Positions 11,326-51,204 of a stretch of 64,000 nt of DNA are shown one piece after another (position 1 is the first letter of the stretch; each line of letters begins with the position of its first letter). Source of the stretch: Mesorhizobium loti (GTDB lineage: Bacteria; Pseudomonadota; Alphaproteobacteria; Rhizobiales; Rhizobiaceae); the NCBI GenBank assembly GCA_002356515.1, contig AP017606.1:186001-250000 (forward strand), read 5' to 3'. The notes below the pieces were generated by a model. That model saw only the letters and a program-made list of their open reading frames with translations. It searched no databases and was not told the DNA's origin. The translations under genes and the position numbers were made by a program.

Positions 11326-11378
11326 CGGCATGATCTGTTCCCAAAAGCGGGAACCGCTTTTGGGAACAGATCATGCCG
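11326..11378. repeat. 25-bp perfect inverted repeat (extragenic palindrome)
   Basis: Arms 11326-11350 and 11354-11378 are perfect reverse complements separated by GAA; each contains CTGTTCCCAAAAGCGG or its complement. The sequence is typical of repeated extragenic palindromes scattered in rhizobial genomes. It lies between the Toprim gene (stop 11684) and the DUF2493 gene (start 11237). The remainder of 11238-11683 is GC-rich and holds no supported gene. Confidence 0.85.
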
Positions 11379-33937: not shown

Positions 33938-33989
33938 TTTTGGATATCCCTGGTGCGGATGTTGACTGGTTCTCCGTCGCCGGAGCCCG

Positions 33990-34016
33990 TTAGCACTCGC
34001 CACACGCGAGTGCTAA
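33990..34016 (-). promoter_or_regulatory. CIRCE element (HrcA operator)
   Basis: TTAGCACTC at 33990-33998, nine bases, and GAGTGCTAA at 34008-34016: an exact match to the CIRCE consensus TTAGCACTC-N9-GAGTGCTAA. HrcA binds this site and represses groESL until heat shock. Its presence on the plasmid operon means it is controlled by the host's chromosomal HrcA. Confidence 0.97.
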
Positions 34017-34334
34017 CGCGACGGTGGGATAGGCGGTCGGCTGGTACTAGTCAAGACGGAAGAGGAGACGAGTGAAGAGTAAAACAAGCACGCACGTGAG
34101 ATTTGCACCCGATCCGCAGATCACCATACCGACCAGCAGCTTCGACAAGTGCCGCGCTCAAAGGCCTGACCGAAGACCGCATTCGATCATACGTTCAGAC
34201 AGTCAGAAACTCCTTGTACACCGGACGGCAACATGAAGCGGAAGCTTCACGGCTTTCCATCCGAGCGCAACGGCTGCGGATTTGGTCCATCAACCGGCAA
34301 AGAATTCGCGCCGATTCTATGAGCGCTTTTGCCG
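34017..34334. other. Intergenic, promoter side of groESL; no gene recognised
   Basis: Only an 80-codon plus-strand frame (34103-34345) without ribosome-binding site or recognised motif. It runs into the DUF2285 gene on the other strand and is probably not real. The groESL promoter is expected in the first 50 bases. Confidence 0.35.
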
Positions 34335-35061: not shown

Positions 35062-36267
35062 TCATCCTGTCATCCTTGAGGTCGTCCCATTGGCTTTCAG
35101 CGCGGCCATCAGCATCGGTCCAACCGAAAACTCCCCTCCCCTCGCCTTTTCGGTGAGTACCCGCATATAACCGCCAGCCGAGTTGATGTGCTGCGCCCGT
35201 TGCAGAATGCAGGCAATCACGATCGCCGCGGTCTCCTGGCCCATCACATGGCAAGCCTCCTCATACGCTGAAGGCGAAACCCCCAGAAAACCCCGCACCT
35301 GGGCGGCCGTTATCATGAGTTCGCGCCAGTTGCCGATCCCATCTATGGCGTAGGGCACAATATCGGGGCAGGCCTTCAGCACCATCCCCAGCGGATAGGT
35401 TTTCGGCGCCTCTGCGGTCCTCGTCCTGGGCTCGGCCGTTGCCCCGCTTTTTTCTAAAGCAGGTTCAGATTCAAAAATAGAGTCGGTGTTTGAATCAGGT
35501 TGCTGCCGCTCGTTTTGAGAGTCATTGCCGCTCGTATTCGTGGATTTCATGTGAATTTCCAGCAGCTTATCCACATCGTCATGCAACGCGGCCAGATCGG
35601 CCGCGATCGGTTCGAGCTCAGCAATAGAGGCGCGGCGTGGGATTGCTTCCACAACGCGGCGGAAACGTCTCCAGAGGCCTCCCCAGTCGCCCGGCACGTC
35701 TTCCTCAACGGCCGCCTCTATCAGCTTTTGGATGTCACGGCGGTGCAAGGTGATCCGCTCGCGCATAAGCCTGAGCGCCCTGTTGTCGGCGCGGACCCGC
35801 TCGGCCGCCGCCTCGAACTCGTGAGCACGGGCCAGCAGCGGCGCCAGGGAGAAGCCGAATGCTTGCTCGATCTCCCCTCCCCTGCCCTTGCGCGCGTAAC
35901 GCTTGCCGTTCGGGCTGTCCCGACGGATGATCAGCCCGCAATTCACAAGAGCCGCCAGGTGCCGTCTGACTGTGGGCTCGGGCATTGCATGCGCCCTGAG
36001 TGAGAGGTGGGCGTTCGAGGGAAAAACGATGAGCCCGTTTTCCTCGCTCAGCTCATTGTCCGGGTAGAATGACAGCAACGCATTCAGCACGGCCAAAGCG
36101 CGATCGCCGACACCGGCGATGCTCCTGCCCTCGCAGAGGTTGCGGTAGATCTGCCATTTGTCGACGGCGGTGCCCTTGGGGATTTCACGTGAATCGTTTT
36201 GCGCCGCCAACATGGCAAGCGACATCGGTCGCCGCCCAAAGGGCGTCGTTGCAATACCCGTCTCCAT
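35062..36267 (-). CDS. repC: Replication initiator RepC
   Basis: 401 residues, ATG 36267 with AAGGA upstream. It starts METGIATTPFGRRPMSLAML, the typical RepC N-terminus, followed by RNLCEGRSIAGVGDRALAVL, the conserved winged-helix core around LRAHAMPEPTVRRHLAALVN, then CGLIIRRDSPNGKRYA. RepC binds the plasmid origin, which usually lies within the repC coding sequence. The C-terminal domain (YPLGMVLKACPDIVPYAIDG, then EEACHVMGQETAAIVIACIL) is intact. Expression is limited by the antisense RNA in the repB-repC gap. The full gene set marks this replicon as repABC. Confidence 0.97.
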   Translation of the reverse strand: METGIATTPFGRRPMSLAMLAAQNDSREIPKGTAVDKWQIYRNLCEGRSIAGVGDRALAVLNALLSFYPDNELSEENGLIVFPSNAHLSLRAHAMPEPTVRRHLAALVNCGLIIRRDSPNGKRYARKGRGGEIEQAFGFSLAPLLARAHEFEAAAERVRADNRALRLMRERITLHRRDIQKLIEAAVEEDVPGDWGGLWRRFRRVVEAIPRRASIAELEPIAADLAALHDDVDKLLEIHMKSTNTSGNDSQNERQQPDSNTDSIFESEPALEKSGATAEPRTRTAEAPKTYPLGMVLKACPDIVPYAIDGIGNWRELMITAAQVRGFLGVSPSAYEEACHVMGQETAAIVIACILQRAQHINSAGGYMRVLTEKARGGEFSVGPMLMAALKANGTTSRMTG

Positions 36268-36326
36268 TTTTCCTTCGCCTTCAATTAGGCAAAAGAAATC
36301 CGCTCGCCGAATCGACGCCTAGACTC

Positions 36327-36355
36327 TTGACAGTGATTCGTGGAAATGCGATTCT
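36327..36355 (+). promoter_or_regulatory. Promoter of the counter-transcribed RNA
   Basis: TTGACA (36327-36332), exactly 17 bases, then GATTCT (36350-36355) on the strand opposite repABC. This is a good sigma-70-type promoter in the position where the incompatibility RNA of repABC plasmids starts. Confidence 0.8.
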
Positions 36356-36361
36356 CAGTTT

Positions 36362-36414
36362 GCGACAACTTTGAAAGAGGCTTCCACGGCTAAGGTCGTT
36401 TGGGGGCCTTTTTC
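36362..36414 (+). ncRNA. repABC counter-transcribed antisense RNA (ctRNA, inc-alpha)
   Basis: The repB-repC gap (36268-36423) on the plus strand has the promoter above, then about 50 transcribed bases ending in a stem (AAAGAGGC 36374-36381 with GCCTTTTT 36406-36413, one G-U pair) followed by T-rich sequence. In this plasmid class a small antisense RNA binds the repC leader, promotes premature termination or blocks repC translation, and determines incompatibility. The 5' and 3' ends are estimates from the promoter and the T-run. Confidence 0.75.
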
Positions 36415-36423
36415 TTTTGCGGT

Positions 36424-37419
36424 TTACTCCTGCTTCGATTTTCTGTTTGCCTGCCAGTCGGCATAGAGATCGTCCAGCCGTTCTGTCAGATATGCGCCAA
36501 AACCTTCATCGGCTCCGGCAGTCTTGAGGGAGAGCGTATAGGCCCTCCCTGTGTCCTTGATCTTTGCCGCGACCTTGCCGCCGTTCGGTTTCCACTCCCT
36601 GATCTGTTCTCGCTGCGGCTTCTTCGAAACTTCAGCCAAAACCATCATGAAGCGTTCGTCCGAGCCCAAGGCCTCGAACTCGGGCCTGTGGATGGCATTT
36701 TTGGCGGCTTCTAGCGCTTTGGGATCAGTAATCTTTTCGGCAATATCCATCCACCTGCGACGGCCCATAGAGGGTGCGGCACCGATGACTTTGACCAGGC
36801 TGTCCGGAATGCCCTTGGCGACGGACAGCAGTTTCGACAGTTCCGTCTTGTCGGTGCTTAACGCCTGCATGATCAGATCGCGGCCAAAGCCGTGTGTCTC
36901 GAGGCTTAGGGCAAAGACGGCTCTCTCGATATAAGAGAGATCCTTTCTCGCGGTGTTTTCGATACCTTGCGCGACTACGAGTTCATTGTCCGATAATGGC
37001 CTGACAACCGCCCTTACCTTCCGCCTCAGGAGCCGGACAGCACGAAGCCTCCTATGGCCATAGGCAACCTGATATCGTCCTTCGAGATCGGGGTGCAGCC
37101 TGACGAGGATGGGCACTTCTTGGCCGTTATCCTCGATCGACCTCACAATATCGTCCGTAGCGGCTACCTCGCCGTCAAGGCGATCACGCACGAATGAACC
37201 GTCAATGAGTTCGGGATCGAGTTCGACAACCCTCTCGCCGGACTTCAAGGCTTCTTGAAGTTCTCTGGCTTCCTGGTCCATGCGGTCGAGCGCAAGTCCC
37301 ATCGTCCTTACAGGCCCCGCCAGAACACGACCGCTATCCGTCTCTCTGGAAAAGTTGGCCGCGGCCAACTCTCGCGTCGTATCGGCAAATATTCCGTTCA
37401 GAACGTCTCGCCTGCTCAT
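36424..37419 (-). CDS. repB: Partition protein RepB (ParB family)
   Basis: 331 residues from ATG 37419, overlapping the repA stop as ATGA, with GGGGGAGG upstream (a frame start 12 bases earlier is possible). SFVRDRLDGEV, then VPILVRLHPDLEGRYQVAYG, then HRRLRAVRLL is the ParB CTPase motif region. SLETHGFGRDLIMQALSTDK is the helix-turn-helix. RepB binds parS; here three identical 16-bp palindromes are found, one within repB's own codons 17-22 (37354-37369). It partners with RepA to segregate the plasmid. Complete. Confidence 0.96.
   Translation of the reverse strand: MSRRDVLNGIFADTTRELAAANFSRETDSGRVLAGPVRTMGLALDRMDQEARELQEALKSGERVVELDPELIDGSFVRDRLDGEVAATDDIVRSIEDNGQEVPILVRLHPDLEGRYQVAYGHRRLRAVRLLRRKVRAVVRPLSDNELVVAQGIENTARKDLSYIERAVFALSLETHGFGRDLIMQALSTDKTELSKLLSVAKGIPDSLVKVIGAAPSMGRRRWMDIAEKITDPKALEAAKNAIHRPEFEALGSDERFMMVLAEVSKKPQREQIREWKPNGGKVAAKIKDTGRAYTLSLKTAGADEGFGAYLTERLDDLYADWQANRKSKQE
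37354..37369. promoter_or_regulatory. parS site 1, inside repB
   Basis: GTTGGCCGCGGCCAAC, a perfect 16-bp palindrome of the repABC parS type (GTTnnnnGCnnnnAAC). It encodes codons near the start of repB. Confidence 0.92.
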
Positions 37420-38630
37420 GACCTCCCCCATGCCTTTTCGATGTCGCCGAGGATTTCCCCGTTGACTGCATCAAGGGATTCGAGTGCCCGGTCGAATGTC
37501 GAGCGGCGAACTTGTCCACGTTCGATCTCATAGAGTGTCTGTTTCGTGAGCCCGGCATCGGCGATCGCCGTCGATTTCAAGACTGTCGCCGCCAAAACCT
37601 CTTCCCCAAAGAGACTTCTCAACAGGGCAACGATCTGTGCTTGCGGACCATCATGCGGCTCATGGCGCGTTATGACATACCGGATGAAATCGTGGTTTAG
37701 ATCGCCGCCTGCGTTCCGGACGACCGACAGAAGGTCGGAAGTCATGAGCAGAAACTGCGACATTGACGCCACGTCGACCATCTGAGGATGGACGGTGATG
37801 AGAAGCGATGTCGCTGCACAAACCGCACCGAGTGTCAGGTATCCGAGTTGCGGCGGGCAGTCGACCACCACAATATCATAATCGGCTTCAACTTCGGCTA
37901 AGGCCATGCCGACGCGCCGAAAGAAGATTCCGCTATTGCTTGGTTTCCGCTGCCCCATCAACGCAGTCGGGGTTTCGTGCTCGAACTCCATCAGTTCCAA
38001 ATTTCCGGGAACGAGGTCGAGGCCAGCGAAGTACGTTTTTCTGATTATTTCCTTCAGCGGCCGCCGTTTCTCGTCGTAACGGATCGCACCGTAGAGGGTA
38101 TCGCCTTCCGCGAGATCGAACTCCGGCTGAACACCGAGCATCGACGACAACGAAGCCTGCGGGTCGAGATCAACCGCGAGAACGCGATATCCGTGCAGAG
38201 CAAGATACTGTGCGAGGTAGATAGACGTCGTTGTCTTTGCACTACCGCCCTTGAAGTTGGCGACGGCAATCGTCTGGAGCTTCTCACCTCTCTGCCGCCA
38301 GGGAAGGTAAGTGAGTGCATCCTTCGGCTTGATAGAAGCCATGTATTGACGCAACTCATGAATTTGGGAGAGAGAGTACGAACGTCGTCCCGTCTGGGAC
38401 ACCTCAGGCGTAGGGCCTCTGCCATCTATGGAAAGCTGCCGTAAATAGCCGTCTGATACTCCGACGAGCTGAGCGGCTTCGCCGGAGGTGAACGTTTTCA
38501 ACATCTTCTGGGAGGACGGTGGGAACAGGCGCTCTCGCAGTAGCTGCAGCTGCATAGACAGCTGGCGAGCATGATGAGCAATCCGCGCGTCGGAAGAAAT
38601 GGCCGTCGATACGTTTTGAGTCTGCAACAT
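37416..38630 (-). CDS. repA: Partition ATPase RepA (ParA family)
   Basis: 404 residues, ATG 38630 preceded by AAAGGGGAA. The N-terminal helix-turn-helix region (MLKTFTSGEAAQLVGVSDGY, LRQLSIDG) and LRQYMASIK are typical of repABC RepA. FKGGSAKTTTSIYLAQYLAL is the deviant Walker A, VLAVDLDPQASLS the A' motif and DIVVVDCPPQLGYLT Walker B. RepA segregates plasmids and represses repABC from a site upstream; a palindrome at 38652-38675 fits. First gene of the operon repA-repB-repC. Confidence 0.97.
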   Translation of the reverse strand: MLQTQNVSTAISSDARIAHHARQLSMQLQLLRERLFPPSSQKMLKTFTSGEAAQLVGVSDGYLRQLSIDGRGPTPEVSQTGRRSYSLSQIHELRQYMASIKPKDALTYLPWRQRGEKLQTIAVANFKGGSAKTTTSIYLAQYLALHGYRVLAVDLDPQASLSSMLGVQPEFDLAEGDTLYGAIRYDEKRRPLKEIIRKTYFAGLDLVPGNLELMEFEHETPTALMGQRKPSNSGIFFRRVGMALAEVEADYDIVVVDCPPQLGYLTLGAVCAATSLLITVHPQMVDVASMSQFLLMTSDLLSVVRNAGGDLNHDFIRYVITRHEPHDGPQAQIVALLRSLFGEEVLAATVLKSTAIADAGLTKQTLYEIERGQVRRSTFDRALESLDAVNGEILGDIEKAWGRS

Positions 38631-39154: not shown

Positions 39155-39640
39155 CACGGCGTGATGTGGACGATGCCGCCACCGGCGTAGCCGGGCAGCC
39201 GGTATACGAGTCCGGCAAGCGCGCACGTCGATCACTGGCTCGCGCCGCACCCAGGTCGGCGAAGTCCGCGACGCCCGGCTCGGTCGGCCGAAAGGCGAAG
39301 GCGCTGACGCCGCGCCATTCGGCGAAGCTTTTCCTGTCCTCGCCGATACCAGTTCCAGAAGGCAGTGAGGTCGCCGTTGAGTTCGATCAGCTCCCTTTCG
39401 ATCCAGGGCACGGTGGTTGCCGCAACAATTGCCGTCCGCAGCGACAACAGCGTGAGGATTCCTCCAATTGGGATCGTCGATCGTCACGACGGTGAAGGCA
39501 AAGCCTGGAAAGGGGCCTTATTGAGGGCAGGGGGGCGAGCTTGGCGTCGACCGACTGGGCCTTCAGAGATGCGAGCTCGGTTTCGACGGAAGCGCGGTCG
39601 GGCGGGCAGACGGGTCCCGTGGTCAGGCAAGGCTCTCTTC
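39155..39640 (-). pseudogene. Decayed copy of the unknown gene of the recombinase module
   Basis: Minus-strand fragments match the intact-looking gene at 41713-42809: VCPPDRASVETELASL (versus VRLPDATTVEAVLAAL), WIERELIELNGDLTAFWNWY (versus WVENELTALGGDLTAFWNRH) and VYRLPGYAGGGIVHI (versus VYRLGSRAAGSIVHM), in three different frames. The 3' third is absent. The copy sits just upstream of repA in the same orientation. The sequence before it also matches the intact locus, including the first arm of its inverted repeat (39746-39754). The rest of 38848-40004 holds nothing else recognisable. Confidence 0.8.
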
Positions 39641-40004
39641 GGCAGGGCGAAAGAAACGCGTTCTCGTCGGTGGCAAGGCCGACTGTCATCGCCGGCGACA
39701 TCTGGAGGAATTTTGGTCGATTTGGTCGGCGAGATCAACCAGAGGTCACTATCGGAGCGGACGCCGACGGCCGCGTCTACCTAGGCCCCGAGAGCGACAT
39801 GCTTGTCGCAGATCCGCTCGACGGCGACGGTCGTGTTGTCGTTGAGGATGTGCCAGAAGTGCGCCGCTTGGGATGCCGCCCAACCGGATTCAGCGGGCCC
39901 CAGCCTCGACGCAGTAGGGTGCAGATCACGAAGAGGGGGCTCGATCCGCTCCATGGGGCATGGCGGTGGCTGCAGTGCTTGTCTCGACGAGCATCATCGA
40001 AGGC

Positions 40005-40163
40005 ATGAAAACCGAGCATGACCGGGAACCGACGCTCGATGAAACCGCCGGAATGGTGTGGTGGAACTCACTTTCCGAGGCTGGCAGCGCCGTTCCAGCC
40101 GATGCCTGGGCCGCGTACAAGCGTTTCAGAGATGTTGACCGTCAGCCGCGGATCAAAGACTGA
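40005..40163 (+). CDS. Small conserved rhizobial protein
   Basis: 52 residues: MKTEHDREPTLDETAGMVWW, then NSLSEAGSAVPADAWAAYKR. The 'GMVWWNSLSE...SAVPADAWAAYKR' pattern resembles a group of short uncharacterised rhizobial proteins that share a 'WWN.lte....W' core; the identification rests on memory of that pattern. GAAGG lies five bases before ATG 40005. It is too short for firm assignment. The following 40164-40533 holds no supported gene. Confidence 0.5.
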   Translation: MKTEHDREPTLDETAGMVWWNSLSEAGSAVPADAWAAYKRFRDVDRQPRIKD

Positions 40164-40533
40164 AGGCTGATCTGAAGCGAGGACAACGTCCTTTGGTCAT
40201 TCGTCAGGTGGCGGGTGGTTCGGCGACGAGACCAAACCGGCGGGCTGGATCGAGCAGGTTTCCGACTCATGCGTCCGACCAATTTGCGATCCCTCGTGGG
40301 GTGCGCTCATGCAGGTGCTCGAGTTGGTAACGGTGTCGCGAAGCGATATGATTGCCCGAGCGTGCAAACCGACCTTCACGCCCAGGGGTAGGTACGGATA
40401 GACTGCTTCGCACTGAGTAGCAGCTTGCGAGATCCGGAAAGATCAAAAGTTATCGGTACCGGCGCGGGCAAACCAATGTCCGGGCCGTCCAACGCGACGC
40501 TCGAAAACCTCAAGACTGCGATGCGTGGGCCGG

Positions 40534-41703
40534 TCAGACGATCAGCCGCGCGGCGCGTCCCAATTGGCGCTCGGCGTCGTTGTAATAGCGCGATGCCTGT
40601 TGCACGGAGCGGTGCTGCGATTGCTGCATGGCTTCCGACAGGGGAATGCCGCGGCGGGCGGTTTCGGTCAGAAAACCGGAGCGCAGGCCGTGGGCGGAAA
40701 AAAGCTTTGGATCAAGCCCGGCCTGGGCGATGCGGCGTTTTAGGATCAGGTTGACGGCTTGTGGGGTGAGCGCCTTTCGCTCGAGATGGCCCCAACGGTC
40801 GATGCCGCGGAACACCGCACCTTCGGTAATCGCCGATCGTTCCAACCACTCCTGCAGCGCCAGCACGGGCCGTCCGACCAGCAGGACAAAAGCGTCCGCG
40901 TCGGCCTCGGTGGTTTTGGTGCGGTCGAGCCGGATTTTCAGGCAAGGCAATGTTGGGCTTTCAGGATCCTTCGGATCGGCCGGGACCGGATCCTGCGCAA
41001 CGATCTGCTCGACGCGCAGGGCCGCAACCTCGCTGCGACGGCGGCCGCCGGAGGCGAAGGCGACGAGCAGCACGGCGCGGTCGCGCAGGTCGACAAGGCG
41101 GTCGCCGGCGCAGGTTTTGAGCACCGCGCCCAGAATGTCGGCGGTCACCGCCTTTTGGCTTTTTCGTCCGCGCGGCCGCGTGCTGGCGCGGACAGCGAGT
41201 TTTAAGGCGCTGCGCAGCCCCGGCGCGTTGAATTTTCCCGCAGAACCGCGCCACTGCGTCAGCGTCGACCAGCTGGCCAGCCGCCGGCGCACTGTGTTCG
41301 GCGCGTGCGGTCCGTCGCTACGCAAAAGCCCTTGCAATTTCAGCGTCGCCGCGACGTCGGCCGGCATGCCGTGCGCCGGATCGGTTTCGCGTTTCGCAGA
41401 ATCCCAGAGGTGATGCGCGACGTATTTTATCAACAGCGCCTCAGGCGCCGGCCAGGGTAGGGGCTGTCCAGTGGACGCCTGGCACCAGGCCTCGAGATAG
41501 CCGAGGTCGGAAGCGAGCGCCCGAAGAGAGTTGTCGCCAATCCCTTCCCTGGCGAGGTGGCGCAGCGTCTCGACGTCATCGTCGGAGAGCAGCTCGGCCA
41601 AGCGGTCGCGGCGGTCGAAGTGCAGCACCGAATCCAGTGCGTCAAGCGCCTCTGCACGGCGCAGTTTTTGGTCGGATACGGGTTTTGGCAGACGAAGGTC
41701 CAT
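40534..41703 (-). CDS. Tyrosine recombinase (module recombinase 1)
   Basis: 389 residues. The SAM-like N-terminal half (HLAREGIGDNSLRALASDLG) precedes a catalytic domain with R221-R223 in ASGGRRRSEVAALR, K263 in RLDRTKTTEA, H338-x-x-R341 in FSAHGLRSGF, H364 in QSQHRSVQQAS, and Tyr373/374 in SRYYNDAERQ. All catalytic residues are present. It starts nine bases after the frameshifted gene on the same strand, so both were probably in one transcript. Such enzymes resolve multimers, integrate elements or invert segments. Its partner recombinase (43205-44428) suggests a two-enzyme XerC/XerD-like arrangement. Confidence 0.9.
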   Translation of the reverse strand: MDLRLPKPVSDQKLRRAEALDALDSVLHFDRRDRLAELLSDDDVETLRHLAREGIGDNSLRALASDLGYLEAWCQASTGQPLPWPAPEALLIKYVAHHLWDSAKRETDPAHGMPADVAATLKLQGLLRSDGPHAPNTVRRRLASWSTLTQWRGSAGKFNAPGLRSALKLAVRASTRPRGRKSQKAVTADILGAVLKTCAGDRLVDLRDRAVLLVAFASGGRRRSEVAALRVEQIVAQDPVPADPKDPESPTLPCLKIRLDRTKTTEADADAFVLLVGRPVLALQEWLERSAITEGAVFRGIDRWGHLERKALTPQAVNLILKRRIAQAGLDPKLFSAHGLRSGFLTETARRGIPLSEAMQQSQHRSVQQASRYYNDAERQLGRAARLIV

Positions 41704-41712
41704 GGCGACCGC

Positions 41713-42809
41713 TCAGAACAGATAGGGCTGGTCGGCCCAGGCGAGCAGGACGCCGGCGTCTCGAGGGGGCAAACGCACCCGTCCTTGCCGCAGGCCCGCA
41801 GCGATCGCCTCGCCGACGTCCGGATCGACCCAGTGGCCGTGGGTCATCAGGAAGAACCAGGCGAAAGGCAGGCCAATTTTTTGGTCGATGGCGTCGGTCA
41901 GCTCCATCAGGCGGTGCACCGAAATGCCGTCTTCCAACACCAGCTTCTCGGTCGGCATTTTGAGCGGACGCGGGATAAAACCGATCTCGCGCCGGCCACC
42001 ATGCTCAAGATCGTGGATGTCGAAGGCCCAATGGTCAAAGATGCGGTGGGCGCAGGCGCTCGACCGCTCCCAGTCGGCAAAAAAGCGGTTCTCGCGTGGC
42101 ACGAAATCGAACCAGTCCGGATTGGCGTCCAAGAACGCGGTGTCATGCTTGCCGTCGGGACCGACCTGACGGATGATGCGGTTTTCGAGCTCGGGACGGT
42201 TTGCCTGGCGCTGTTCCTTGTCGATGCGCGCCCGGCGCGCCAGGAAACTGCGCATGTGAACGATGCTACCGGCGGCGCGGCTGCCCAGCCTGTACACGGT
42301 CCGGAAAGCAGCGACGCGTCCGTGGCTGGCTCGCGCCGCACCCAGGACGGGTCCAAAAGATCGTCGGCGCTATAAGGGCGGTAATCGGGATCGACGACCG
42401 GACCAGCCAGAACCTCGATCTCACGGCCAAGCGAGAGCTGGACAAAATCGGCGACGCCCGGGCCGGTCGTAGCGCATACGAAGGCGGAGGTGCCACGCCA
42501 TTCGGCGAATTTTTGTTCGCCCGATCGGTGCCGGTTCCAAAAGGCGGTTAGGTCGCCGCCCAGCGCGGTGAGCTCATTCTCCACCCAAGCGCGGTGGTCG
42601 CCGAGTCGCGCACCGTCGGCGGACAGGACCGTGCGGGCGTCGCCGCGCCAGTAAAGATCGTCGACCGCTGCGGTCGTGAAATCAAAGCCTGGAAAGGCGT
42701 TGGCGAGGGCAGGGACGAGCTCGGCGTCGGCCGAGGCGGGATTGAGGGCGGCGAGCACGGCCTCGACCGTTGTGGCGTCGGGCAGGCGGACGGGTTTTTC
42801 TTCGCTCAT
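41713..42809 (-). pseudogene. Unknown gene between two recombinases, one frameshift
   Basis: From ATG 42809 the frame reads MSEEKPVRLPDATTVEAVLA, then WVENELTALGGDLTAFWNRH, SAFVCATTGPGVADF and ends DPSWVRREPATDASLLSGP. At about 42298 the coding sequence jumps by one base to VYRLGSRAAGSIVHM, then NPDWFDFVPRENRFFADWER and GLPFAWFFLMTHGHWV. Joined, the two halves form a coherent ~365-residue protein of no family I know. A one-base deletion, error or programmed frameshift explains it. The decayed copy near repA covers the same region and shows the joint sequence VYRLPGYAGGGIVHI, so the two halves belong together. Confidence 0.7.
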
Positions 42810-43204
42810 GCCGGGCGGCCTCTTTTGCGCGGCGGAATGGCCGCCCCCTTGCTTCTCGGCGCGCGCGAACGTCGCTGGCGGCCATCTGGAGCACGATTCT
42901 GGCTGATTTGCGCCGCGAAAACAATCACTATCGATAAGAGGCCATTATCGATAGTGACTTTTGTCGTCGAGGATATCGCCTGTGACCGAAGTGAAATACA
43001 AGATAGCTTCTGTTTCGCGAATGACATACAATCGAATCAATGGCTTATGATCTTGCCAACTTGCCCCTGAAGGCCTTGGTCGGGCCGCTCGCCCGCGCCG
43101 ATGTCGCTTTTACTTCCCGATTTCAATTGAAGCGCTAAGGTGAAAATCCTGTCTTCCCCGGACCGCCATACGGTGGCCTGAAGCGGGGGAGGGAAGGGGG
43201 CTTC
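42810..43204. other. Regulatory gap of the recombinase module
   Basis: No gene. It contains the 13-bp inverted repeat at 42925-42957. The bases before it (CATCTGGAGCACGATTCTGG) match the corresponding region of the decayed copy near 39710. Confidence 0.55.
42925..42957. promoter_or_regulatory. 13-bp perfect inverted repeat, candidate recombination or operator site
   Basis: TCACTATCGATAA (42925-42937), seven bases GAGGCCA, TTATCGATAGTGA (42945-42957). The 13-bp arms and short asymmetric spacer resemble tyrosine-recombinase sites (loxP has 13-bp arms and 8-bp spacer). It lies between two such recombinase genes, 115 bases before the start of the gene at 42809. The left-arm half TCACTATCG recurs at the same distance in the decayed copy (39746-39754). 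Confidence 0.6.
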
Positions 43205-44428
43205 TCAAAGCCCCGACGCCTTGGTGAGGTTGACCCTAAACCGATCGCGCCGTCGCTGGTATCTGCGCGTCATCTCGGCGCTGGTGTGGCCAAGCTGCTT
43301 CTGCACATAGCGCTCGTCGACTTCGGCCGAGGATGCCAAACCGGCGCGCAGCGAATGGCCGGCAAAGAGTTTTTCGCGTTCGCCTTCCGGCAGGTCACCG
43401 CGCACCCCGGCGGCTAGGGCGGTCCGCTTGACGAGGCGGGCGACCTCCTGGTCGTTGAGCCGATCGGCGCCGACCGCCTTGCCTTGGCCGGTGACGCGCC
43501 GGAAGAGGGGGCCGTGCGCGATGCGCGCCAGCCTGAGCCAGGTTTCCAATGCTACGACCGGGCAGGTCGTGTCGGATGAGCCACGCCCGACTTCGACCTC
43601 GCGCCAGCCGGTCTTGCCGCGCAGGCGCAACAGCATGCCCTTGTCGAGGATTTCGATCCAGCCGGAAGAATCCTCGGTCTGTTCGCGGCCGCAATCCAGG
43701 CCGACAACCTCGGAGCGACGCAGGCCGCCGGCAAAGCCGAGCAACAGCATGGCGCGATCGCGCAGGCCGCGCAGGGTGCCGCGGTCGAGCGTTTCCAGCA
43801 TGGCGATCAGATCCTCGGGCAACACCGCCTCCTTCTGCCGAGGCGGGGCAGCGTGCTTGTTGCGGATGCCGGCCATGACGGTAGCGATATGGCGGTCCTT
43901 CCTGTCCAGCGGCTGGCCACGCTGCGCATAGTTCCACGTCAGCGAGGAGAGCCGGCGTTCGATCGTCGACACGGAATTGGGCTTCTTCTCGCCGGGCGCC
44001 TTTCCCGAGGCGCATGCGGTGATGTAGAGCCCAACCACCTGGGGATCGGGCGGAAACATTTCGACGCCCTGCCGACGGCACCAGCTCGCAAATTGCTTCC
44101 AGTCCGAGGCGTAGGCGCGGCGGGTGTTGGCCGAGCTCGCCGCCTCGACATAATCGCGGGCGCGCCCGGCCAGCGCGTCGAGATGCGCCGGCAGGCGGGG
44201 ATTGGCGACAACCGGAAGAGGGGAGGGGGTGTCGGCCGGCGCTTCCTCCGGCGCGCGGCCCATCTCCAGGACGACGTCGATGATGTCGGGCAGGTCGTCG
44301 GCGATCGGCGTGTCGTGCCCGGCCGAGCCTGCCTGCGCGATTTGATCGACACCCGGCGCCGTTTCCTGTGGTTGAGCGGAGCCGTGCTGAGTATGTTTTT
44401 CGGGGTTTTGATCGACGAGAGAGGCCAT
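43205..44428 (-). CDS. Tyrosine recombinase (module recombinase 2)
   Basis: 407 residues from ATG 44428; the longer frame is possible but its start is hydrophobic without need. The acidic N-terminal ~80 residues precede a SAM-like domain (SANTRRAYASDWKQFASWCR). Catalytic residues: R237 in GGLRRSEVVGLD, K272 in LRGKTGWREV, H358-x-x-R361 in AGHSLRAGLAS, H381 in QLGHTSAEMT, Y390 in RRYQRRRDR. All are intact. Together with recombinase 1 it flanks the unknown gene. The divergent 44429-44545 gap contains GATAA-N7-TTATC. Confidence 0.9.
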   Translation of the reverse strand: MASLVDQNPEKHTQHGSAQPQETAPGVDQIAQAGSAGHDTPIADDLPDIIDVVLEMGRAPEEAPADTPSPLPVVANPRLPAHLDALAGRARDYVEAASSANTRRAYASDWKQFASWCRRQGVEMFPPDPQVVGLYITACASGKAPGEKKPNSVSTIERRLSSLTWNYAQRGQPLDRKDRHIATVMAGIRNKHAAPPRQKEAVLPEDLIAMLETLDRGTLRGLRDRAMLLLGFAGGLRRSEVVGLDCGREQTEDSSGWIEILDKGMLLRLRGKTGWREVEVGRGSSDTTCPVVALETWLRLARIAHGPLFRRVTGQGKAVGADRLNDQEVARLVKRTALAAGVRGDLPEGEREKLFAGHSLRAGLASSAEVDERYVQKQLGHTSAEMTRRYQRRRDRFRVNLTKASGL

Positions 44429-44453
44429 TTCCAATATAAAGACGAAAACGACG

Positions 44454-44470
44454 GATAAGGCAACTTTATC
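44454..44470. promoter_or_regulatory. Second GATAA-N7-TTATC element in the recombinase/DUF1403 gap
   Basis: GATAA (44454-44458), GGCAACT, TTATC (44466-44470). The core arms and 7-base spacing equal those of the inverted repeat at 42925-42957 (GATAA-GAGGCCA-TTATC). It lies between the divergent starts of recombinase 2 (44428) and DUF1403 (44545). Confidence 0.45.
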
Positions 44471-44544
44471 ATTCATTACACGCAAACGACAGGCGCGGCG
44501 GTTAGGAGGTGATGTGCTTGCCAAAAGCGCCGTCGTGATTCATC

Positions 44545-45576
44545 GTGCTTTCGATGATTCTGCGTCCCAAACCCTCTCCGCGCCACCACGCCACGCTTGC
44601 CGGTGCCCCTTCGACCGCGCCGATGACAACGGTGCCGGCCTGGCTGCGCCGCGCCGTCCCGGATGCACAAGGCCTTGCGAGCAAAAACGCAGAGGATGTG
44701 GCGCTCGTTGTCGGCGCTGCCATAGGCGCGCTCGATGCCGTGGTCCGCCGGCAGGAGCGGTGGTCCGGCGCCTGGCGGCAGCGCCTGGCGCTTTCGGCGG
44801 CCGCGGCAACGGCGAAGCAGGCCGGCCGCGTCGAGGACGAAAGCGCGCTGCGCGACGCCGTGCTGCTTACACGCCCGGGCGATTTTTTGTCCGTCGGTCC
44901 CGCCGGATCGATGCTGTTGGCTTGGCGCCGGCTGGCCAGCACGCCTGCCGAGAAACTGCTGACCGAGGCCAGCATCGGCGCGGTGCTGGATGACCTCGGT
45001 CTCCGCCGCGACGACGACGCAGTCAGCGACTTGGCGGACGATCTTCGACAGCTCCCCGGGGGCATCGGAATGGTCGGCATGCTGACCGGCGCGTTCACGG
45101 CTGCCGAAAGATATGGCTTCGCACGAGCCTTCGGATGCTGGCTCGCCGACGCCCTGCTGGCGCATCGGCTGGGTTGGGCCCACGCGGTGCCGCTGCTGGG
45201 CGCCGAGGCAGGCTTGGGTACAAGCGCCCGCCCGCGTCGATCGGCAGCCAGCTCTCTGGCGACAGGCATTGAGACAGATCCTGAGCGTGCCAAAAGTCTG
45301 CTTGCCGCGCAGGCGCGCGCTGCCCTGCGCGCCATTGATCTTTCCGCCGAGCTTGAGCGCCGCGCGGGCCGGCTGCTTGCTGTTGCCCCGAAACTCAGGG
45401 CCAAGGCGGCGGACGCTGTTGTCGACAAGCTCCTGTCCGACGACGCGATCGTTGCCTCGGAAAAGATCGCCGGCATGAGTGACCGTGGGCTGCGCCGCCT
45501 GTTCGACCGGCTGGTCGAACTCGGCGCCGTGCGCGAGCTTTCCGGCCGTCCGGCCTTCCGTATCTACGGGCTGTGA
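44545..45576 (+). CDS. DUF1403 family protein
   Basis: 343 residues. It begins GTG (ATGs at 44554 and 44623 are alternatives). The conserved body runs WLRRAVPDAQGLASKNAEDV, ALVVGAAIGALDAVVRRQER, WSGAWRQRLALSAAA, then LDDLGLRRDDDAVSDLADDL, with the helical tail GMSDRGLRRLFDRLVELGAV ending in a winged-helix-like SGRPAFRIYGL. The family is restricted mostly to rhizobial plasmids and is typically followed by an ScpB gene, as here with a 4-base overlap. The end resembles Fic-associated DUF proteins, but no catalytic motif is seen. Function unknown. Confidence 0.88.
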   Translation: MLSMILRPKPSPRHHATLAGAPSTAPMTTVPAWLRRAVPDAQGLASKNAEDVALVVGAAIGALDAVVRRQERWSGAWRQRLALSAAAATAKQAGRVEDESALRDAVLLTRPGDFLSVGPAGSMLLAWRRLASTPAEKLLTEASIGAVLDDLGLRRDDDAVSDLADDLRQLPGGIGMVGMLTGAFTAAERYGFARAFGCWLADALLAHRLGWAHAVPLLGAEAGLGTSARPRRSAASSLATGIETDPERAKSLLAAQARAALRAIDLSAELERRAGRLLAVAPKLRAKAADAVVDKLLSDDAIVASEKIAGMSDRGLRRLFDRLVELGAVRELSGRPAFRIYGL

Positions 45577-46289
45577 AGACGATGGTGGAGAGTGCACGTA
45601 GGAGAAGGGGAGGGGCGCAAGGAGGCGACGGCCGGCCAAATGACCATTTGTTTGATCGCGAGCTGGATCACCTGCCGCCGGAGGCGCGCTGGCGCGAATG
45701 GATGAACCGTGTCGAAGCAACGATCTTTGCGGCCAGCCAACCGGTGACACGCGAAACGCTCGCCCGGATTGTCGGCAAAAGCTGCAGCATCGATCTTTTG
45801 ATCGACGACATTCGCGAGGAATTGCGCGGCCGACCCTATGACCTCGTCGCCGTCGCCGGTGGCTGGAAGCACCTGACCCGGCCTGCCTATGCCGACGCCA
45901 TCCGCAGTGCAGCCGGCGGCAACGATCGCGCGGTACACCTCTCGCAGTCAGAGGTGCTGGTGCTGATGTGCATCGCCTACTTCCAGCCAATCACCCGCAC
46001 CGAGTTGTCGTCATTCTTCGGCAAGGAGATCAGTCGCGATTTTATTGGTCATCTGCGCGGTGCCGGTCTGATCGCTTCCGGTCCGCGTAGCCCGACCCCG
46101 GGCGCGCCCTACACCTACGTGACGACAAAAGAGTTCCTGCTGGAGTTCGGGCTCGAAACCTTGCGCGATCTTCCCGACTTCGAGGCGCTGGAGGATGCCG
46201 GGCTGCTGTCGAAGGAAAAGCTGCTTGCGGGCGACATCATGCCGGGGTTTTCGGGCCCCGGCGAGAATAATGCCGACGCCGACGAATAG
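45573..46289 (+). CDS. ScpB-like segregation/condensation protein
   Basis: 238 residues, start GTG 45573 overlapping the DUF1403 stop; ATG 45582 also possible. WREWMNRVEATIFAASQPVT, then TLARIVGKSCSIDLLIDDIR and YDLVAVAGGWKHLTRPAYAD are the first winged helix; QSEVLVLMCIAYFQPITRTE, LSSFFGKEISRDFIGHLRGA and the 'GAPYTYVTTKEFLLEFGL' end are the second. ScpB pairs with SMC and ScpA kleisin. Plasmid copies lack an adjacent scpA or smc, so this one either borrows the chromosomal complex or acts as a DNA-binding adaptor with DUF1403. It is the second gene of a two-gene unit. Confidence 0.88.
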   Translation: MKTMVESARRRRGGAQGGDGRPNDHLFDRELDHLPPEARWREWMNRVEATIFAASQPVTRETLARIVGKSCSIDLLIDDIREELRGRPYDLVAVAGGWKHLTRPAYADAIRSAAGGNDRAVHLSQSEVLVLMCIAYFQPITRTELSSFFGKEISRDFIGHLRGAGLIASGPRSPTPGAPYTYVTTKEFLLEFGLETLRDLPDFEALEDAGLLSKEKLLAGDIMPGFSGPGENNADADE

Positions 46290-46325: not shown

Positions 46326-47627
46326 TCACCGCAGCTTCTCGAGAGATCGGACAGCAAGATCGATTTTCCCTATGAGCTCTCTCAACGGCGCACAATCCGG
46401 ATAGTGCTGCATCAGCACGGACTGTGCGAGGCGGAGGTTCTCGATGTGCTGTTCGCCAGCTTTTGGCTTTCCTTCAATGGAATTCTCTCCGTAGTAGAGG
46501 TCGAAAAATACCGCATCGGGCATGGCCGCCCGATCGTGTTCGCATTGAACCCAGTCATCAAGCTCGCTTCGGACGGCATCAACGCGCTTGTACACGCCCG
46601 CGCGCGCTCGCGTGTCGGTCAGCACACTCTTCAGCAGGGTGCCTATCCTGGCATGCGCGTCCACGGGCATTGCCGCCTTCGGACGCCGGCGGCGCTGACC
46701 GCTGAGCGGCAGCCGGTACTCGACAGTGGTTTTGGGACCGCGTGGCGCGGGAGCTTTTCGTTGGACGTTTCTCGCGAGCTTCGCCTCGGCCTCAGCCCTC
46801 TCTCCCGGAGTCACAAAAGGAACGTGACCCTCGACGGCGACCCTGTCACAATTCGCGGGCACGATCGGTGAAGGAGCCTTGGAAAGCGCCTTGAGGAGCC
46901 GATCCAGCGAATATCCCTTCGACGTATCGGCATACAGATAAAGTTCACAGCCTTCCGGATAGTACATCCCCGCCCATTCCGGCCTTGCAAGCGACCAGTT
47001 GTGCTGCCGCGCCCAGGCGTCCCGTTCGGCAATTTTCGACGGAACACTCGCGGCGTAAGGTTCGTCGGCGCCGACATGATGTTTTGCCACTGGATCGTAC
47101 CAGACACTTCCATGATCACGTCCAGGCAAGCGGGCCGAATATACCGCTCCGCGTTCGACGTCTGCCTTGGATGGCTGCAGGCCGGTGATGTCCATGAACT
47201 GCAGTACCCTCGCGGCTCCGCAAGCGCGCTCCAGAGCCGCGCTCGCCGAGTCCGGTCGATACTCATCGACCACATGGTCTGAGGCATGACGTCGGAAACG
47301 ACCGAGCTTATGAGCATATCGATACTGAGATGGCTTGATCAGCTCATCGAGTGGCGTTGATAAGAATACCCGGATCGTCTCACGGCCGGAGGCTCCTGTT
47401 AGGCCATCGCGCCAGAAGGTGGAGATGTAGACGGCCTGCCGCGTCGAGCCGGCTTCCGCTGAACATGCGGTCAACGATCGCCGTGCATGCTGAAAATTGC
47501 CAAAGCCCGATGCTTGTGATGCTGTGTCGAGGGCTTTGCTGTGCGAGATCGAATCTCGCTTTGAGATCGCCTTGGCAAGGCGCTTTATGCCCTCAATCGA
47601 GGACGGCTGAATATCTGTCTTGGACAT
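46326..47627 (-). CDS. DUF5623 family protein
   Basis: 433 residues from ATG 47627, with AGGAGAA upstream. MSKTDIQPSSIEGIKRLAKA, then SKRDSISHSKALDTASQASG and FGNFQHARRSL is the conserved start that resembles small toxin-related 'glyoxalase superfamily protein' N-termini. Later come VYISTFWRDGLTGASGRETI, then RVLQFMDITGLQPSKA and WYDPVAKHHVGADEPYA, and a helical C-terminal domain. The family is found on alphaproteobacterial plasmids; function unknown. It stands alone on the minus strand. Its end overlaps no neighbour. Confidence 0.85.
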   Translation of the reverse strand: MSKTDIQPSSIEGIKRLAKAISKRDSISHSKALDTASQASGFGNFQHARRSLTACSAEAGSTRQAVYISTFWRDGLTGASGRETIRVFLSTPLDELIKPSQYRYAHKLGRFRRHASDHVVDEYRPDSASAALERACGAARVLQFMDITGLQPSKADVERGAVYSARLPGRDHGSVWYDPVAKHHVGADEPYAASVPSKIAERDAWARQHNWSLARPEWAGMYYPEGCELYLYADTSKGYSLDRLLKALSKAPSPIVPANCDRVAVEGHVPFVTPGERAEAEAKLARNVQRKAPAPRGPKTTVEYRLPLSGQRRRRPKAAMPVDAHARIGTLLKSVLTDTRARAGVYKRVDAVRSELDDWVQCEHDRAAMPDAVFFDLYYGENSIEGKPKAGEQHIENLRLAQSVLMQHYPDCAPLRELIGKIDLAVRSLEKLR

Positions 47628-47882
47628 GCCAGTTCTCCTGGCCCGTGGGGAAGTGTCGCCCGTCAACCACCTCGCGAGCCCGAACATGACATGAACGGGA
47701 GCGTCAGCAACGGCAGTGCTGTCAACAGCTTCGCAACGACGGGCGGCGCGCTCCTGCCAGAGCACCGAATCGCAGAATACAATTGATCCCCCTTCGTGAG
47801 AAGCGTTTGGGCGACTGCATTGCCCCCCAATTTCGAGGGTCACAGAGACGGCTTACGAGATGCTGCCCTGAGGGGATCCCGA

Positions 47883-48875
47883 TCAAATGACTCGCGAATA
47901 CGCCTCAAGCAGATCGATGAGGCCAGCATTCGGGGGTGGTGAGCGCTTTGACAATTGCGATTGCTGAGTCTTCTCCAGGATATCTGTAAATCGAGCGATC
48001 AGTTCTGAGTGGCCGCCCTCAGACAGAATAGCCCGACGTCGATGCGCGATGGCACCATCCTCATTGCTGAACAACCAGTCTGCAGGCTGCGTCGTAAGCG
48101 CGTTGAAGCAGTGGATGCGCGTTGCAGCCGATAGGCTGGTCAGGCGCTTTACCGAGCGAATGTCGGCGACAACTGGCGCATGCAGCAGGCGCGACACCAG
48201 ATCTTTGATCGTGGGCGAGCGTTTGGCAATTTCGATGCTGCAGATGTCCGCGATGGCACGTTCGAGCCGCCGCGACGCTGCGTTGATGGAGGTCTTCGGG
48301 GCGCCACGCAAATCGAAGCGGCATCGCGCGCAGAAATGCTGTGGGCGGAGCTCAGTTAGGTCAAAAGAGGCGACACCGGCGTGGCAGTTGGGACATCGAT
48401 CGCGAAGGCTGCAACGATGCATGAAGCAGGATATCCGAGATGACAGCCGCCACTGCCGGCGAAAATACGGTGCTTCGTCGTCGGCGAGACACAGAGGGCA
48501 ATACTGCATCCAGGTGGAACGGCTCCGGTGCGCGTTCTCGCGAAGAGGCAGCAGGAGCGGGATCAACGCACAACCGGTCATGGTCATCGTTATGATTTCT
48601 TCACGCGGAACACTCGTCTGATCAGCGAGCCAAGCGGCGACGTGGCGTGGAAGATGAAGATCGAGGCGCGGCGACCACATCCCGTTGCCGAGCCCGAGGA
48701 CGCTGGCGAACGACCGCGGTGCGATTCCGTTTGCGAGCGCGAGACGGCTGATCCAGCTCGACAGCAGCTCGTCCGGCTGCGGGTCGACAGAAACCGGCCA
48801 CCGACTAGGAACGACGTCGCCGTATCGCTCGCGAATCTCGATCGCGAAGCCCGCCCGTGCGCCATCACCTATCAC
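47883..48875 (-). CDS. TniQ-family transposition targeting protein
   Basis: 330 residues. WPVSVDPQPDELLSSWISRL, then ALANGIAPRSFASVLGLGNG match the TniQ N-terminus (a DNA-binding helix-turn-helix). Cys motifs follow: YCPLCLADDEAPYFRRQWRL, then HRCSLRDRCPNCHAG and FCARCRFDL, zinc-binding pairs. TniQ/TnsD proteins direct target choice for Tn7-like and Tn5053-like transposons. The start overlaps the tniB stop (ATGA). Intact, but the transposase TniA is missing except for its C-terminus, so the element cannot move by itself. Confidence 0.88.
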   Translation of the reverse strand: MIGDGARAGFAIEIRERYGDVVPSRWPVSVDPQPDELLSSWISRLALANGIAPRSFASVLGLGNGMWSPRLDLHLPRHVAAWLADQTSVPREEIITMTMTGCALIPLLLPLRENAHRSRSTWMQYCPLCLADDEAPYFRRQWRLSSRISCFMHRCSLRDRCPNCHAGVASFDLTELRPQHFCARCRFDLRGAPKTSINAASRRLERAIADICSIEIAKRSPTIKDLVSRLLHAPVVADIRSVKRLTSLSAATRIHCFNALTTQPADWLFSNEDGAIAHRRRAILSEGGHSELIARFTDILEKTQQSQLSKRSPPPNAGLIDLLEAYSRVI

Positions 48876-49750
48876 AGCAGGTCGTCGCGCACTGGTGCCC
48901 GCCGGCGCTTCGAGACCGGGACGTAGCGAAGCGCCTCGATCCCCGGTTTCGTGATCCGCTCCTCACGGGACCTCACCGCGGCCGCGGCCGCCGCGGAGAC
49001 AATCGCCACGATCTCGCCGATCAGTCCCTCGGAGAGCTGGAAGATCGATTGCGCCAAGGGTTCATCCGAGAGATCGGACGCGCGGGCGAGCGGCAGGGCG
49101 CTTTCGAGGCTATCGAGCAGCGCAAGGAACTCCTCGCCATATTGCCAACGTGGCACGGCGTGCAGGTCGAACCGGGTCGCCATTTCGGCAGTCTGGTTGA
49201 CGAAGTCGTAGATTGCGACCTCGCCTATCAGAACAGGCGAAATGTCGAACTGACGGCCGATCCTCCGAAGGAACGCAAGAACTGCCTCGACATCGCGCGC
49301 CCTGCCGCGCAGAGCATTGTGGAACTCATCGAAGATCAGTATTCTGGGCTTCAGCCTGTCGAGCAGATGATCGACCTGCTCGGCCTTACGGCCGACGTCC
49401 CGGCTGCTGCCGGTTGGCGCGTGCAACGCCTGCAGGATGCTCCCGTAGAAATGGGCGAGACCTGCGCCCTCGCGCGTCTGCACCACCCAGACTCGCTGCT
49501 GTTCGGCCGTCTTCAGATGCCCGACGGCGAACCGTTCGGCGATCATCGTCTTGCCGTTGGCATAGGGTCCGACGAGCATCAGGCCCAGGGTCCGCAACGA
49601 TGGCGGCCGCGACAGAAGCTCGGCAAGGCGTTCATGCGCCTGGACCGCCACTTGGTGTCCGATCCATCGCGGCGTCTGGATATACGCAATCCGCTCTTCC
49701 GTGCTGTGGTCGAGATGCGGGCGAACGTGATCGAGAAGATGATCAGTCAT
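48872..49750 (-). CDS. TniB-family transposition ATPase
   Basis: 292 residues from ATG 49750 (GGAGGA before it), which immediately follows the tniA stop. MLVGPYANGKTMIAERFAVG is Walker A; RPRILIFDEFHNALRGR is Walker B; TAEMATRFDLHAVPRWQYGE is the sensor region. TniB (TnsC/MuB relatives) is an AAA+ ATPase that brings target DNA to the transposase. Gene order tniA-tniB-tniQ is typical. The tniA part (49752-50045) is only a C-terminal piece fused with a metH fragment. Confidence 0.9.
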   Translation of the reverse strand: MTDHLLDHVRPHLDHSTEERIAYIQTPRWIGHQVAVQAHERLAELLSRPPSLRTLGLMLVGPYANGKTMIAERFAVGHLKTAEQQRVWVVQTREGAGLAHFYGSILQALHAPTGSSRDVGRKAEQVDHLLDRLKPRILIFDEFHNALRGRARDVEAVLAFLRRIGRQFDISPVLIGEVAIYDFVNQTAEMATRFDLHAVPRWQYGEEFLALLDSLESALPLARASDLSDEPLAQSIFQLSEGLIGEIVAIVSAAAAAAVRSREERITKPGIEALRYVPVSKRRRAPVRDDLL

Positions 49751-49751
49751 C

Positions 49752-50033
49752 TTACCAATCCTCCACCGGCAGGCGACGCTTTGGGCGAGCGGGATGATCG
49801 GCGGGTGCCGGCGCCGCCGGCCGCATCGCGTCATAGGGCTTTGGGGCGTCTGCGGCATGACTTCTGCGCACAGCATTACGAAGTTCCGCCTTCGACGGCT
49901 TCGTTCCGCCGGCAATCTCCGCGATCCGGCGGCGCAGCGTCACCTTCTCGACGTCCGTGCGCGCGTTCGCGGCGCGTCGCTGCAGGCGGTCGGCCTCGTG
50001 CTCCCACAACGTTATCGGAGCAAGCATGCCGTC

Positions 50034-50045
<12 letters not shown>
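49752..50045 (-). pseudogene. TniA C-terminal remnant fused to metH
   Basis: The minus-strand frame [20 protein letters not shown], then [16 protein letters not shown] and the tail ending RRLPVEDW is the helical C-terminus that ends TniA-type (DDE) transposases, just before tniB. It continues directly, in frame, from a methionine synthase sequence (RMHEK), so a deletion or insertion joined the two genes at about 50034-50046. The catalytic core is gone. Confidence 0.75.

Positions 50046-51204
<1,159 letters not shown>

What the first reader, a model, noticed from the sequence alone, without database searches (positions are those of the whole stretch)
39155..46289. Two tyrosine recombinases, an unknown gene, DUF1403 and ScpB with shared inverted-repeat sites
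Two complete tyrosine recombinases flank a gene of unknown family; divergent from them is a DUF1403-ScpB pair. A 13-bp perfect inverted repeat with 7-base spacer lies between the recombinase genes, and the core GATAA-N7-TTATC recurs in the divergent promoter gap. In the decayed copy near repA the sequence TCACTATCG survives 132 bases from the matching codon, against 131 bases in the intact locus. So the site has kept its place across a duplication. A two-recombinase plus condensin-like module beside repABC could be a plasmid dimer-resolution or segregation system.
Basis: partly seen in the sequence, partly recalled or inferred. Interest (0 to 1): 0.8.

Follow-up and report, generated by a model that had tools for sequence, protein, structure and literature searches.

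The report
Paired recombination sites swapping plasmid halves
Next to the replication genes of this soil-bacterium plasmid lie two enzyme-plus-DNA-site units of a kind already shown to fuse plasmids in a related bacterium; each kind of unit is paired with an unstudied, probably DNA-binding protein, and related plasmids differ just at these sites, as if whole plasmid parts had been swapped there.

Summary
Observation confirmed. The 13-7-13 palindrome (site1, 42925-42957) and a second GATAA-N7-TTATC core (site2, 44454-44470) are real, beyond chance and conserved on alphaproteobacterial plasmids. They are of the att type used by IntA, the tyrosine recombinase that joins plasmids p42a and p42d in Rhizobium etli: window Rec1 is 63% identical to the p42a integrase beside that site, and the published 23-bp att has the same core. 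Of 85 Rec1 loci, 65 carry such a site upstream (shuffled 0.13); 45 of 47 DUF1403 genes carry one, 42 of them 61-84 bp before the start. Related plasmids part company at these sites: the window's plasmid shares about 90 kb at 99.8-99.96% with pMLa, one edge of it at site2, and repA-to-rec1 with another plasmid (93%) up to the last base of site1. So both look like natural crossover points. New relative to IntA: a second recombinase/site pair with DUF1403-ScpB; kinship of DUF1403 and RHE_PE00001; a predicted Fic fold plus winged helix without the Fic motif. Dimer resolution is plausible, unproven. The site keeps its distance from DUF1403 even where no such recombinase lies near, so it may also be that protein's binding site. 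The unknown gene is frameshifted in this window.

The parts
42925..42957 (.). site1: att-type site, 13-bp arms, 7-bp spacer (reads TGGCCTC toward rec1)
   Evidence: natural breakpoints at it
44454..44470 (.). site2: GATAA-GGCAACT-TTATC core, 74 bp before the DUF1403 start and 25 bp before the rec2 ATG
   Evidence: natural breakpoint at it
40534..41703 (-). rec1, tyrosine recombinase, 63% identical to the R. etli p42a integrase (taken to be IntA)
41713..42809 (-). unk, gene of unknown family between site1 and rec1; frameshifted in this window, intact in relatives
43205..44428 (-). rec2, tyrosine recombinase of a second family; relatives in 102 of 294 genomes searched
44545..45576 (+). DUF1403: predicted Fic fold plus winged helix, no Fic motif
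45573..46289 (+). ScpB, one of four in the genome against one ScpA
39155..39754 (-). decayed unk N-terminal part with half-site TCACTATCG (39746-39754)
35062..38630 (-). repC, repB, repA beside the module

Best explanation
The stretch is a double IntA-type site-specific recombination module of a repABC plasmid. Unit A is site1 - unk - rec1; unit B is ScpB - DUF1403 - site2 - rec2. Inferred mechanism: each recombinase binds the two GATAA-containing arms of its own site, cuts at the edges of the 7-bp spacer and exchanges strands between two copies, fusing plasmids (two molecules) or splitting dimers and cointegrates (one molecule). The divergent winged-helix protein (DUF1403 in unit B, its relative RHE_PE00001 in ordinary unit A loci) sits at a near-fixed distance from the site and probably binds it, as autorepressor and accessory factor. 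Shown here: conservation of site, spacing and architecture; kinship to IntA; natural breakpoints at the sites. Inferred: binding, cleavage, which enzyme uses which site, roles of partner and ScpB.
For: Rec1 is 63% identical over 383 aa to the p42a integrase that lies 111 bp from TCCGATAAGCAGTACTTATCGGA; the published IntA att, a 23-bp palindrome, has the same GATAA-N7-TTATC core (PMC4928290, passages). 93 stretches of the species-representative contigs match 20 fixed bases of the site exactly (about 0.2 expected, 257 Gb / 4^20); 89 of 93 hold a match to a module, rep or VapC query. Rec1 loci: k=7 in 46 of 85, k=5 in 1, no other k from 0 to 20; downstream none; with variants 65 of 85 against 0.13 in shuffles. 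Rec2 loci: k=7 in 44 of 60, no other k from 0 to 15; downstream 1. Breakpoints: window vs pMLa at the DUF1403-side arm/spacer edge of site2, with about 90 kb at 99.8-99.96% on that side of the circle; window vs MesoLj113b2 at the last base of site1, RHE_PE00001 beyond; window vs MesoLj131b2 at site1; p42a vs two Rhizobium plasmids, each sharing one opposite flank only. Outer-arm halves occur in all four combinations.
Against: 20 of 85 Rec1 loci show no such site. DUF1403-ScpB with a site2 core 84 bp upstream stands on the host's own chromosome with no rec1 or rec2 relative in a 19.9-kb stretch, and pNGR234a keeps a variant site by an RHE gene whose nearest annotated recombinase is of another label, 'recombinase family protein': the site follows the partner gene more faithfully than the recombinase. 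In the MesoLj131b2 comparison the low-identity stretch left of site1 is only about 160 bp; further left, in the rec2 3' end, identity is 97-100% again, so that pair is a finer mosaic. Edges could in part reflect homologous recombination in conserved islands. Rec2 and site2 have no experimental relative that I found.
Confidence: 0.8

Rival explanations
1. The palindromes are primarily operators or binding sites of the divergent Fic-like winged-helix proteins (DUF1403, RHE_PE00001), which repress their own and the recombinase promoter; recombination at them is secondary.
For: 45 of 47 distinct DUF1403 genes have a site within 500 bp upstream, 42 of them 61-84 bp before the start; 76 of 85 RHE genes have one, clustered at 33, 82 and 91 bp (many RHE loci were fetched by the site pattern itself, most DUF1403 loci by rec2). 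Site2 with DUF1403 but no rec1 or rec2 relative nearby on the chromosome. Site2 spacers are few (11 types in 45).
Against: IntA recombines such 23-bp sites (PMC4928290) and no RHE gene is annotated beside the p42a site, although RHE proteins encoded elsewhere in R. etli could act in trans; edges of identity fall inside the sites. Both roles can coexist.
Confidence: 0.45
2. A dedicated dimer-resolution system for the low-copy repABC plasmid, with exchange between plasmids as a side effect.
For: One site per unit, often close to repABC (Rep hits in 44 of 85 Rec1 and 45 of 60 Rec2 loci); distant match to Xer models; an earlier paper suggests such a role for a XerD-like gene near repABC (PMC10194956, passages).
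Against: IntA excision is about ten times rarer than integration. Co-resident plasmids share the same spacer more often than expected (4 of 14 pairs; permutation p 0.0025, 0.033 when restricted to the same site class), which invites fusion.
Confidence: 0.4
3. A cargo platform: toxin-antitoxin and other genes collect between site and recombinase, as in an integrative element.
For: VapBC, DUF1778-GNAT, VapC or unk lie between the DUF1403/RHE side and the recombinase in several loci; the gap from site to rec2 varies from about 25 bp to about 5 kb while site to DUF1403 stays nearly fixed.
Against: Among 60 Rec2 loci only one (L318) showed a second exact core on the far side of rec2, and that one reads like a unit A site; degenerate cores were not sought.
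Confidence: 0.2
4. Sharp identity edges arose by ordinary homologous recombination, and the site is only the last conserved island before unrelated DNA.
For: Sites are conserved islands; only 5 of 50 alignment ends counted within 1.5 kb fell at the core (one-genome-per-species data, duplicate contigs not removed, ends near two sites counted twice).
Against: Those 5 ends lie in a 33-bp band where about 0.6 is expected if ends were uniform over 3 kb; edges sit at the arm/spacer boundary or the last arm base in several plasmid pairs.
Confidence: 0.15

Closest known systems
IntA / attA-attD of Rhizobium etli p42a and p42d
   Same: Rec1 63% identical over 383 aa to the p42a integrase; site a palindrome with GATAA-N7-TTATC core beside the recombinase gene; joins plasmids (PMC4928290, passages)
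   Different: Window arms read CACTATCGATAA, not TCCGATAA; a second recombinase/site pair; unk, DUF1403 and ScpB, which the passages read do not mention
Xer/dif and plasmid cer-type resolution
   Same: Tyrosine recombinases with weak matches to Xer models (15-56 bits); ATAA-spacer-TTAT inner arms resemble dif (recalled, not tested)
   Different: Scores far under the Xer cut-offs of 220-371 bits; plasmid-borne, 7-bp spacer, palindromic arms, a site beside each recombinase
BIM bipartite modules (recombinase plus conserved unknown protein; PMC3414803, passages)
   Same: Rec1 with unk is a recombinase-unknown pair; unk has relatives of about 26-34% identity on beta-proteobacterial plasmids
   Different: Whether unk is the BIM partner protein was not tested
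Fic/Fido proteins; DUF1612
   Different: No HxFx[DE]GN motif in 46 DUF1403 and 81 RHE proteins
SMC-ScpA-ScpB condensin
   Same: ScpB passes the PF04079 cut-off
   Different: Under the TIGR00281 cut-off; no ScpA with it, the only ScpA found is chromosomal

Membership tests
IntA-type plasmid recombinase and att site | tyrosine recombinase homologous to R. etli IntA over its length | tested here: met
   Rec1 63% over 383 aa; that the p42a gene is intA follows from its place beside att, not from a record label
IntA-type plasmid recombinase and att site | palindromic site with GATAA-N7-TTATC core beside the gene | tested here: met
IntA-type plasmid recombinase and att site | recombination at the site | not testable with these tools
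   only natural breakpoints seen
IntA-type plasmid recombinase and att site | Rec2 homologous to IntA | tested here: inconclusive
   profile match of the Rec1 and Rec2 families, probability 99.9%, 30% identity: a relative, separate family
Xer dimer resolution | passes XerC/XerD/Xer model cut-offs | tested here: not met
   15-56 bits against cut-offs of 220-371
Xer dimer resolution | monomerises plasmid dimers | not testable with these tools
   needs an assay
RIT elements | three adjacent tyrosine recombinases | tested here: not met
   two, separated by unk and site1
Fic enzymes | Fic fold | tested here: met
Fic enzymes | HxFx[DE]GN active-site motif | tested here: not met
   0 of 46 DUF1403, 0 of 81 RHE
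SMC-ScpAB condensin | ScpB domain | tested here: met
   PF04079 116 bits, cut-off 27.4; below the TIGR00281 cut-off (67.1 vs 89.2)
SMC-ScpAB condensin | ScpA encoded with it | tested here: not met
   single ScpA match in the genome, on C1
BIM | second protein of the known BIM family | not tested
   paper passages only (PMC3414803)

The most novel reading that the evidence does not exclude
DUF1403-ScpB (and RHE_PE00001 in unit A) is a dedicated accessory complex of a plasmid crossover site: a catalytically dead Fic-winged-helix protein marks the att site and, through ScpB, borrows the host's chromosomal ScpA-SMC to hold sister sites together, so that the tyrosine recombinase separates plasmid dimers and, when two different replicons meet, swaps whole plasmid parts. 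It would be a condensin-guided resolution system, one per replicon.
Probability: 0.15. Interest if true: 0.88.

Novelty: new variant of a known kind. Interest (0 to 1): 0.62.

Why it matters
It ties two widespread families of unknown function (DUF1403, with matches in 683 plasmid records at E 1e-5; and RHE_PE00001) to one defined DNA site and a recombinase, and offers a physical mechanism for the mosaic structure of rhizobial plasmids: replication module and load can be re-paired by a crossover at one fixed point. RHE_PE00001 was reported as essential in R. etli (PMC9022086, one passage), without an explanation in that passage; a candidate binding site for its family makes that testable, though the p42e copy itself has no such site beside it. 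It also turns the puzzle of plasmids carrying an ScpB without ScpA into a testable question.

Tried and rejected

Selections and dropped rows: of the Rec1 matches, the window's own, fragments and frames with stops were not fetched, leaving 85 loci; of the Rec2 matches, 60 mostly high-scoring loci were fetched, so close relatives are over-represented. One search left out identical proteins, genes with under 40% query coverage and genes with under 300 bp of upstream DNA. One search used 63 of the 65 sites. In one search contigs fetched twice were not removed. L196, one of the 20 Rec1 loci without a k=7 site, has long arms with a 5-base gap.
Full report
What is there. On the minus strand next to repABC (35062-38630) lie rec1 (41703-40534), a gene of unknown family (unk, 42809-41713) and rec2 (44428-43205); DUF1403 (44545-45576) and ScpB (45573-46289) point away on the plus strand. 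Site1, a 13-7-13 perfect palindrome, is at 42925-42957, and a second GATAA-N7-TTATC core, site2, at 44454-44470. In the whole 294,703-bp contig the core occurs only at these two places (0.07 expected from composition). unk is frameshifted in this window; intact copies exist in relatives (for example).

Identity of the site. The site is of the type used by IntA of Rhizobium etli. The paper PMC4928290 (passages read) gives the 23-bp att as two arms of a palindrome with a divergent centre, TCCGATAAGCATTACTTATCGGA, and reports integration at 2.4e-5 and excision at 2.1e-6. On p42a the one-base variant TCCGATAAGCAGTACTTATCGGA lies 111 bp upstream of the integrase gene 2487-1339; the paper says that attA and attD differ by one base, so I take this gene to be intA. 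Window Rec1 is 63% identical to it over 383 aa. The positions that I assign by eye as catalytic R-K-H-R-H-Y are kept in at least 97% of 136 Rec1-family and 74 Rec2-family sequences.

Conservation. An exact scan with 20 fixed bases found 93 stretches in the species-representative genome set (257 Gb / 4^20 gives about 0.2 by chance). Of the 93, 89 hold a match to at least one of the module, rep or VapC queries, 71 a Rec1-family gene and 66 an RHE_PE00001 or DUF1403 gene. Independently of the pattern, Rec1 relatives were found in 67 of 297 genomes drawn from the family and 85 full-length loci fetched. GATAA-Nk-TTATC upstream of them occurs at k=7 in 46 of 85 loci, at k=5 in one and at no other k from 0 to 20; downstream never. 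Counting variants with a different innermost base pair, 65 of 85 have a site, against 0.13 on average in 30 dinucleotide shuffles; 20 of 85 have none. Rec2 relatives occur in 102 of 294 genomes; of 60 fetched loci 44 have the k=7 core within 1.4 kb upstream, no other spacing from 0 to 15 occurs there, and one locus has a core downstream.

Two units. In unit A the site lies between RHE_PE00001 (divergent) and rec1, with or without unk or VapC. In unit B it lies between DUF1403-ScpB (divergent) and rec2. DUF1403 and RHE_PE00001 are distant relatives (hhalign probability 91.7%, E 1e-7, 299 columns) and so are Rec1 and Rec2 (99.9%, 30% identity). Unit B sites read roughly AACGANYGATAA-TGTTGCA-TTATCGTTCGTTT, 11 spacer types in 45 loci; unit A sites roughly CACTATCGATAA-NNACCNC-TTATCGATAGTG, 42 spacer types in 78 (the core letters are fixed by the way the sites were picked, the outer letters are not). 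The window plasmid carries both units side by side; where it has rec2-DUF1403-ScpB beyond site1, the related plasmid MesoLj113b2 has RHE_PE00001.

Breadth. In six further DUF1403 loci picked from the listing, a Ti plasmid record (NC_002377), a Bradyrhizobium and a Methylocystis plasmid have the exact core 80-83 bp before DUF1403, a Dinoroseobacter and a Ruegeria plasmid a one-base variant, and a Pseudosulfitobacter plasmid none.

Natural crossover points. (1) Window and pMLa are 99.8% identical over 4.6 kb that ends, base by base, at the DUF1403-side arm/spacer edge of site2; three of seven spacer bases and the DNA beyond the far arm differ. Around the circle the same side of the contig shares about 90 kb with pMLa at 99.8-99.96% and a further 35 kb at 98%, with gaps between the blocks (pMLa 150001-251912 was not fetched), while the matches on the repABC side are at most 93% identical. 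(2) Window and MesoLj113b2 share repA to site1 at about 93%, ending at 42957, the last base of site1; beyond it one has rec2-DUF1403-ScpB, the other RHE_PE00001. (3) Window and MesoLj131b2 go from 60-72% identity in the 160 bp left of site1 to 89-97% from the site on; further left, in the 3' end of rec2, identity is 97-100% again, so this pair is a finer mosaic. (4) p42a and a TAL182 plasmid share only one flank of att, p42a and R. phaseoli R744 only the other; of the 60 rows listed (194 records matched), 14 end within 6 bp after the core and 7 more 19 bp after it, but many of these strains look near-clonal. (5) Among the loci held, 5 of 50 alignment ends counted within 1.5 kb of a core lie between -8 and +24 bp of it, where about 0.6 would be expected if uniform (ends near two sites were counted twice). 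Outer halves of the arms occur in all four combinations.

Results against. A DUF1403-ScpB pair on the host chromosome keeps a site2 core 84 bp upstream with no rec1 or rec2 relative in a 19.9-kb stretch; pNGR234a has a variant site by an RHE gene whose nearest annotated recombinase is labelled 'recombinase family protein' (a serine recombinase by that naming, recalled). So the site follows the partner protein more closely than the recombinase, and an operator role is likely as well. RHE_PE00001 on p42e, reported essential (PMC9022086, one passage), has neither site nor recombinase beside it; it follows repC, so that protein must do something without the site too. Identical spacers are commoner within genomes than between (4 of 14 pairs against 3.2%; p 0.0025, or 0.033 when permuted within site classes), which speaks against a spacer code that keeps plasmids apart. 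20 of 85 Rec1 loci and, within 1.4 kb, 16 of 60 Rec2 loci show no exact or variant site as sought; in several of the latter the core lies further off, beside DUF1403.

Verdict. A known kind of recombination system (IntA/att) in a new, double and much wider form, with a Fic-like winged-helix partner and, in one unit, ScpB. Crossover at the sites in nature is well supported; dimer resolution, binding by the partner and any link to condensin are inference.

Noticed in passing
window 42240-42320: unk is broken by a frameshift in this assembly although both pieces are well conserved; sequencing error not excluded.
   Followed up: partly
L346 (G000:C1) 9838-11584: Chromosomal DUF1403-ScpB with a site2 core and no rec1 or rec2 relative in the stretch, beside genes that look like ubiquitin-like/JAB genes (by eye).
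   Followed up: partly
L344 (pNGR234a) 6654-9245: RHE_PE00001 family gene with variant site near a 'recombinase family protein'; a gene of the same label lies near the site in L227.
   Followed up: partly
L225 (pMLa) 1365-2890 and 14172-17177: pMLa carries two DUF1403/DUF5623 clusters on either side of repABC.
   Followed up: no
window 46326-50408: DUF5623 gene followed by a gene annotated TniQ in pMLa and an ATP-binding protein gene; the pMLa-identical block breaks at 49031 and resumes at 52769, with a 371-bp piece between.
   Followed up: no
window 33988-34018: 13-bp palindrome with 5-base spacer just upstream of groES, resembling a CIRCE operator (recalled).
   Followed up: no
window 11326-11378: Perfect palindrome of 53 bp with 25-bp arms, the longest found in the window; function not examined.
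   Followed up: no
L160, L176: Two Rec1 loci have long matching arms but one base less between them (GATA-N8-TATC).
   Followed up: no
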